Assembly: GCA_030180075.1 (NCBI GenBank)
Contig: JASNJN010000117.1
Span: 1-57,570, forward strand
DNA from: Mikrocytos mackini
Lineage: Eukaryota; Endomyxa; Ascetosporea; Mikrocytida; Mikrocytiidae
Length of the DNA stretch: 57,570 nucleotides
Direction: 5' to 3'
The notes under the pieces are model-generated. The model had not been told where the DNA came from. It saw nothing but the letters and a program-made list of their open reading frames with translations, and did not search any database. Positions 13,754 to 14,002 of the stretch are shown here, piece after piece (the stretch's first letter is position 1; every line of letters begins with the position of its first letter). The translations under genes were made by a program, and so were the position numbers.

Positions 13754-13815
13754 CTCATTATGTATTTATAACCCATTCTATCGGATAGAATTATCTTGCA
13801 AGGAAAACTTCCGCT

Positions 13816-14002
13816 TTAATATAAAATACGTGTTCCCGAATAGACCTTTTTGAATATCTTACATTTACAATGGTTACATCTCAGTTGGGCGATGTCTCGC
13901 GTTCTAATCTCCATTCCACACTCTTTATTGCTAAATACTGAAACATTCGTACGTAAGTATGCCCGCGTCCGTGTTTACATTTGGTCTGTTTGTTGATTCC
14001 AT
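13816..14002 (-). CDS. RPB12/RPABC4-like RNA polymerase subunit with a candidate 16-nt intron
   Basis: This gene is too short and split to show as one frame. From the ATG at 14002, 64 nt read to TYECF, where the frame hits stops. Removing the 16 nt 13923-13938 (GT...AG) restores the frame and gives a 56-residue protein. It then reads YECFKCG, followed by DIAQLRCNHC and a basic tail KIFKK. That is the CxxCG...IxCxxC...RIxxK layout of RPB12, the zinc subunit shared by RNA polymerases I, II and III. Without the removal the first CxxC pair is broken. The tail is about three residues shorter than usual. It lies 117 bp from the divergent acyltransferase gene. A short 16-bp insertion in a dead copy is the alternative to an intron. 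Confidence 0.62.
13923..13938 (-). other. Candidate 16-nt spliceosomal intron
   Basis: On the minus strand it begins GTATTTAG and ends ATAAAG, so it has GT-AG ends. Its length is not a multiple of three, and its removal restores both the frame and the CxxC zinc ligand pair of the RPB12-like gene. No classical branch-point motif is obvious. Confidence 0.45.

What the first reader, a model, noticed from the sequence alone, without database searches (positions are those of the whole stretch)
13816..14002. Candidate 16-nt intron in an RPB12-like gene
Removing exactly 16 nt with GT-AG ends (13923-13938) turns a broken frame into a 56-residue protein and restores the first CxxC zinc pair of RPB12. 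Microsporidian introns known to me are short but generally longer than 20 nt; 15-16 nt introns are known from some ciliates. If real, this is among the shortest introns known and needs an unusual spliceosome geometry.
Basis: partly seen in the sequence, partly recalled or inferred. Interest (0 to 1): 0.8.

Follow-up and report, generated by a model that had tools for sequence, protein, structure and literature searches.

The report
Two 16-base introns in RPB12
A tiny RNA polymerase gene of the oyster parasite Mikrocytos mackini carries two 16-base introns, members of an already published class of extremely short introns, and the parasite's U6 splicing RNA appears to have changed to match them.

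Summary
The 16-nt GT-AG interruption is real: its removal is the only single GT..AG removal (8-79 nt) giving the two CxxC zinc pairs of RPB12. No other copy was found in the assembly. The organism is not a microsporidian: its Prp8 is identical to a protein of the GAHX01 set, the Mikrocytos mackini transcriptome (PMC9998036). Introns of 16-17 nt are published for this species (217 of 224 are 16 nt; PMC10245619), so the class is known. RPB12 itself was not tested at RNA level. Possibly new: the near-invariant U6 ACAGAGA box reads AAAGAGA here, complementary to U at intron positions +4 to +6 (GTATTT), which suggests a natural compensatory change. I found no mention of it in the searches I ran.

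The parts
13791..14002 (-). RPB12 gene, ATG to stop, three exons (14002-13939, 13922-13830, 13813-13791), 59 aa when spliced
   Evidence: no other locus found in the genome
13923..13938 (-). intron 1, GTATTTAGCAATAAAG, 16 nt, phase 1
   Evidence: PDB alignment to Rpo12 across the junction
13814..13829 (-). intron 2, GTATTTTATATTAAAG, 16 nt, phase 1; identical to the intron of an eS10 gene in L039

Best explanation
The locus is the RPB12 gene of Mikrocytos mackini, the only copy found. It is interrupted by two 16-nt U2-type spliceosomal introns of the published mikrocytid class, each of the form GTATTT-N5-TAAAG. A reduced spliceosome removes them (Prp8, U2 and U6 found here). Inferred mechanism: U6 A-A-A of its altered AAAGAGA box pairs with intron positions +4 to +6 (UUU), where canonical spliceosomes pair ACA with UGU or AGU. 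U2 keeps GUGUAGUAUC and pairs loosely with the stretch before an A of the terminal TAAAG, which serves as branch point 1-3 nt from the 3' end, giving a lariat loop of about 12-14 nt. Shown: sequence, frame, homology, motif and length enrichment, U2, U6 and Prp8 genes, and one sister intron whose spliced product equals a transcript-derived protein. Inferred: splicing of the RPB12 introns themselves, the U6 pairing, the branch point.
For: Only this single GT..AG restores both CxxC pairs. Spliced product matches Rpo12. The double-spliced protein aligns without a gap over 42 columns with yeast RPB12 from YxC to the C-terminal FEAR; score 49 against 31 for the single-spliced product; rank 1 of 312 GT-N12-AG acceptors in the window and the only one ending F-x-A-R (yeast and human sequences recalled). 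No other locus found. Length peak at 16 nt; GTATTT is 20 of the first 100 listed GT-N7-TTTAAAG sites, GTATGT 1. 7 of 9 spliced products sent to Pfam hit known families, 6 of these with the domain spanning the junction. E2 enzyme: spliced 155 aa = 100% to GAHX01000410.1.p1. U6, U2 and Prp8 present. Published transcript support for 16-nt introns in this species (PMC10245619).
Against: No RNA evidence for RPB12 itself. PF03604 scores below its cut-off. The GT-N7-TTTAAAG pattern as a whole is below its reversed control (438 against 619). Many GTATTTN5TAAAG sites show no clear spliced frame or lie in repeats: of 56 distinct instances in the 83 loci held, 13 met a strict open-frame test, and RPB12 is too short to meet it. 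The single-spliced frame also reads to a stop (RILY), so the second intron rests on the C-terminus and the motif. U1 and U5 were not found. For the U6 pairing: free duplex energies were worse for GUAUUUA with the M. mackini box (+0.5 kcal/mol) than with the canonical box (-3.1), though in another register than the spliceosomal one; and only 48 of 1677 U6 candidates were scored, so a further U6 copy is not excluded. The paper words splicing of 16-bp introns as 63% against 37% for 17 bp, so splicing may be incomplete.
Confidence: 0.92

Rival explanations
1. Only the first intron is spliced; the gene ends at RILY (56 aa) and the second 16-mer is a chance match over the stop codon.
For: The single-spliced frame is open to a stop and also matches Rpo12. 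Background motif matches are common genome-wide (77 in the reversed control).
Against: Motif density (167 in 2 x 13.62 Mb) makes a further chance match in a given 212-nt gene about 0.001 (my arithmetic). The second 16-mer is identical to the eS10 intron. Splicing it gives the conserved flush C-terminus, rank 1 of 312.
Confidence: 0.07
2. The 16-nt insert is a sequencing or assembly error, or the gene is a decayed copy.
For: Without splicing the frame is broken.
Against: The insert has the genome-wide 16-nt motif at exactly the right place; no other copy of this core polymerase subunit was found; the same motif interrupts 7 other genes with Pfam-recognised products, one of them matched by a transcript-derived protein.
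Confidence: 0.01
3. Programmed frameshift or ribosomal bypassing restores the frame instead of splicing.
For: The outcome at protein level would be similar (inference; no call).
Against: GT-AG ends, a length peak at 16 nt and a shared motif; the E2 transcript-derived ORF is a complete continuous frame; published transcript evidence (PMC10245619).
Confidence: 0.005

Closest known systems
Mikrocytid 16-17 nt spliceosomal introns (M. mackini, Paramikrocytos canceri; PMC10245619)
   Same: Same species; 217 of 224 introns are 16 nt and 7 are 17 nt, 'highly conserved sequences', reduced spliceosome with U2, U4 and U6 found; of the roughly half of the genes that were annotated, most serve gene expression or the cell cycle.
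   Different: The logo is in a figure that I could not see, so identity of motif is inferred from shared species and length. The main text does not contain RPB12, GTATTT or ACAGA.
Stentor coeruleus 15-16 nt introns (PMC9505925)
   Same: GT-AG, same extreme length, U2 GUAGUA kept (passages).
   Different: Stentor keeps U6 ACAGAGA and all five snRNAs; its commonest intron starts GUAAUU; branch A mostly at position 10 (15 nt) or 11 (16 nt). Here U6 is AAAGAGA, the 5' site GTATTT, U1 and U5 not found, branch A probably at 13-15 (inferred).
Bigelowiella natans nucleomorph 18-21 nt introns (PMC6461891)
   Same: Miniature introns in a reduced genome (passages).
   Different: No recognisable 5' motif beyond GU, and U6 ACAGAGA kept there.
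Microsporidian introns
   Same: Short, conserved introns and a convergently reduced spliceosome (PMC10245619).
   Different: Different lineage; mikrocytid introns are more numerous and all 16-17 nt.

Membership tests
Mikrocytid 16-17 nt introns | Genome is a mikrocytid | tested here: met
   Prp8 100% to GAHX01002346.1.p1 over the 2010 residues compared; GAHX01 = M. mackini transcriptome. Against: one mikrocytid 18S primer site was not found with up to 3 mismatches; the 18S family search did not complete.
Mikrocytid 16-17 nt introns | Length 16 or 17 nt | tested here: met
   Both are 16 nt; peak at 16 among listed matches.
Mikrocytid 16-17 nt introns | Highly conserved intron sequence | tested here: met
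   GTATTTN5TAAAG shared with introns of other conserved genes; these were found by that motif, and the published logo was not visible.
Mikrocytid 16-17 nt introns | Removed from the RNA | not testable with these tools
   Not for RPB12. Sister intron in the E2 gene: spliced product equals a transcript-derived protein.
RPB12 / Rpo12 | Zinc ribbon CxxC-x13-CxxC | tested here: met
RPB12 / Rpo12 | Pfam PF03604 above its cut-off | tested here: not met
   11.9 bits against 24. The best PDB match is still Rpo12, so the name rests on that, the zinc pairs and the C-terminus.
RPB12 (eukaryotic) | C-terminal F-x-A-R | tested here: met
   VFLAR after the second splice (reference sequences recalled).
U2-type spliceosomal introns | GT-AG ends with U2, U6 and Prp8 in the genome | tested here: met
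   U1 and U5 not found
U2-type spliceosomal introns | U6 ACAGAGA box | tested here: not met
   AAAGAGA in the one U6 found, which is still a clear U6 (65.8 bits, cut-off 44).

The most novel reading that the evidence does not exclude
In M. mackini the near-invariant U6 ACAGAGA box has changed to AAAGAGA together with a genome-wide shift of the 5' splice site from +5G to +5U (GTATTT), so that U6-intron pairing is kept by Watson-Crick A-U pairs at +4, +5 and +6. This would be a natural whole-lineage compensatory rewiring of the catalytic 5' splice-site contact, coupled to introns fixed at 16 nt.
Probability: 0.65. Interest if true: 0.65.

Novelty: new member of a known kind. Interest (0 to 1): 0.42.

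Why it matters
The class of 16-nt introns in this species is already published, so this finding adds two members. Its wider value is as a lead: a spliceosome working at the lower length limit that also carries a changed U6 box matched to its 5' splice sites. That would be a natural test of how U6-5' splice-site pairing can be rewired, a contact that two other tiny-intron systems (Stentor, B. natans nucleomorph) kept as ACAGAGA. It also warns that short genes of this species are easily mis-annotated unless 16-nt introns are modelled.

Tried and rejected
Microsporidian origin: rejected. Second RPB12 copy: none found. The PF03604 search of the genome found nothing, but it does not find this copy either. 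Mikrocytid 18S primer mik1340R (sequence from PMC8856654): no match with up to 3 mismatches; rDNA is perhaps absent from the assembly; organism identity rests on proteins. U1 and U5 by Rfam: none up to E = 10. Duplex energies of the 5' site with U6 favoured the canonical box, but in another register than the spliceosomal one; the right register was not computed. A ranked list of splice joins in the window without a motif was not informative. A third motif match in the window (27305-27290, minus, in a transposase-like ORF) does not extend a frame. The control had no instances and shows nothing.

Papers: PMC10245619 passages and the whole of section 7; PMC9998036, PMC11069148, PMC9505925, PMC6461891, PMC3510501, PMC8856654 and PMC5834847 passages only; all others search listings or nothing. 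'I found no mention of the U6 change' rests on the listings (one search listed 20 of 37 papers, one search listed 20 of 24) and on the term search of one main text, in an open-access library without preprints; figures and supplements were not seen.

Full report
What is there. On the minus strand, 14002..13791 holds a short gene. Its ATG frame is broken by GTATTTAGCAATAAAG at 13938..13923. I listed every single GT..AG removal of 8-79 nt in the gene: exactly one, this 16-mer, gives a protein with two CxxC pairs at RPB12 spacing. The single-spliced 56-aa product matches Rpo12 chains in the PDB (E = 6.2e-4; the alignment Y-x-CFKCG runs over the junction). Its Pfam score is weak (PF03604 11.9 bits, cut-off 24); I report that as a failed threshold. 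A search of the whole assembly with the spliced protein finds only the two halves at this locus.

A second intron. The genome-wide motif search listed another match in the same gene, 13829..13814, GTATTTTATATTAAAG, over the presumed stop codon. Removing it as well gives 59 aa: MESTNRPNVNTDAGILTYECFKCGMEIRTRDIAQLRCNHCKCKIFKKVYSGTPEVFLAR. From Y-x-C to the end this is 42 residues, as in human and yeast RPB12 (sequences recalled); it aligns to yeast without a gap and to human with two 2-residue gaps, and it ends VFLAR where they end VFDAR and QFEAR. The alignment score rises from 31 to 49. Among 312 GT-N12-AG 16-mers of the window used as alternative acceptors, the true one ranks first and is the only one ending F-x-A-R. 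The phmmer gain is small (E 6.2e-4 to 3.5e-4 for the best archaeal chain). The same 16-mer is the intron of an eS10 ribosomal protein gene (L039).

Which organism. The genome has 13.62 Mb in 733 contigs; the window has 32% GC. Its Prp8, one open frame of 2011 codons, is 100% identical over the 2010 residues compared to EukProt GAHX01002346.1.p1. PMC9998036 lists GAHX01 as the Mikrocytos mackini transcriptome (passages). So this is Mikrocytos mackini, a rhizarian, not a microsporidian. Against: one mikrocytid 18S primer site was not found, and the 18S family search did not complete.

A class of introns. GTATTTN5TAAAG occurs 167 times against 77 for the reversed control. With 3-8 spacer bases there are 376 matches against 269; of the first 100 listed, 49 are 16 nt, against 11, 5, 12, 9 and 14 for 14, 15, 17, 18 and 19 nt; counted once per sequence, 32 of 78. 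To look at the 5' site without assuming it, I searched GT-N7-TTTAAAG: the pattern as a whole is below its control (438 against 619), but GTATTT makes up 20 of the first 100 listed, GTATGT 1 and GTAAGT 0. Of 17 spliced products printed, chosen by eye, I sent 9 to Pfam: 7 hit (E2 enzyme, 2Fe-2S ferredoxin, TFIIS-type zinc ribbon of an RPB9/RPC11-like protein, LSM, SKP1, PRELI, eS10), 2 did not; in 6 of the 7 the domain spans the junction. Many other matches had no convincing frame or lay in repeats; of 56 distinct instances in the 83 loci held, 13 met a strict open-frame test. For the E2 enzyme (L040, intron GTATTTAACTTTAAAG) the spliced 155 residues are identical to GAHX01000410.1.p1 from the transcriptome, which implies that these 16 nt are missing from that transcript; I did not see the transcript's bases. 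RPB12 itself could not be tested: transcript-derived proteins of that length are probably not in the collection (inference; no search was made with RPB12 there).

Known or new. PMC10245619 (section 7 read) reports 224 introns in 179 genes of M. mackini, 217 of 16 nt and 7 of 17 nt, with conserved sequences, compared with transcriptome data (16-bp introns spliced 63%, 17-bp 37%, as worded there), and introns of the same kind in Paramikrocytos canceri. PMC11069148 (passages) confirms few and very short introns in both species; the earlier P. canceri paper saw no obvious introns (PMC9998036, passages). The present introns are members of that class. I could not see its logo figure or supplements.

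How it may work. The genome has U6 (65.8 bits), U2 with an unchanged GUGUAGUAUC branch-binding segment and Prp8; U1 and U5 were not found, in line with the paper's U2, U4 and U6 only. U6 reads GAUAAAGAGAAG where the family consensus reads GAUACAGAGAAG. In known spliceosomes ACA of this box pairs with +6, +5 and +4 of the intron (established knowledge). Here AAA faces UUU: the box change and the +5U fit each other. Position +7 is A in 28 of the 49 listed 16-mers (not all of these are real introns), which can pair with the U before the box. Stentor (15-16 nt introns) and the B. natans nucleomorph (18-21 nt) kept ACAGAGA. I found no mention of this change in the main text of PMC10245619 or in the listings. 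Caveats: one U6 was found, with 48 of 1677 candidates scored, and free duplex energies, in another register, were better for the canonical box (-3.1) than for this one (+0.5 kcal/mol). The pairing and the branch point (an A of TAAAG) are inference.

Verdict.

Noticed in passing
L001:1501-1599 (G000:C124:5457-5555): U6 snRNA with AAAGAGA in place of ACAGAGA, complementary to the GTATTT 5' splice sites.
   Followed up: partly
L081:7434-1399 minus (G000:C16): Prp8 is 2011 aa and ends after domain IV: no PROCT or JAB/MPN domain by Pfam, also absent from the domain list of the identical transcript protein P0010. The C-terminal domain that regulates Brr2 (recalled) seems lost.
   Followed up: partly
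L046 and L036, 16-mers near locus position 1500: Two Tc1/mariner-like transposase ORFs (by eye) are each interrupted by a GTATTT..TAAAG 16-mer just before the VWG/IWA region. A related repeat family (L003, L004, L013, L014) has one near the same place, but its frames are mixed: joining lengthens the frame in three copies and shortens it in L014. 16-nt introns may travel with DNA transposons.
   Followed up: no
window 27305-27290 minus: Third GTATTTN5TAAAG match in the window, inside a transposase-like ORF; splicing does not extend the frame.
   Followed up: yes
G000: No match to mikrocytid 18S primer mik1340R with up to 3 mismatches; the rDNA may be missing from this assembly.
   Followed up: partly
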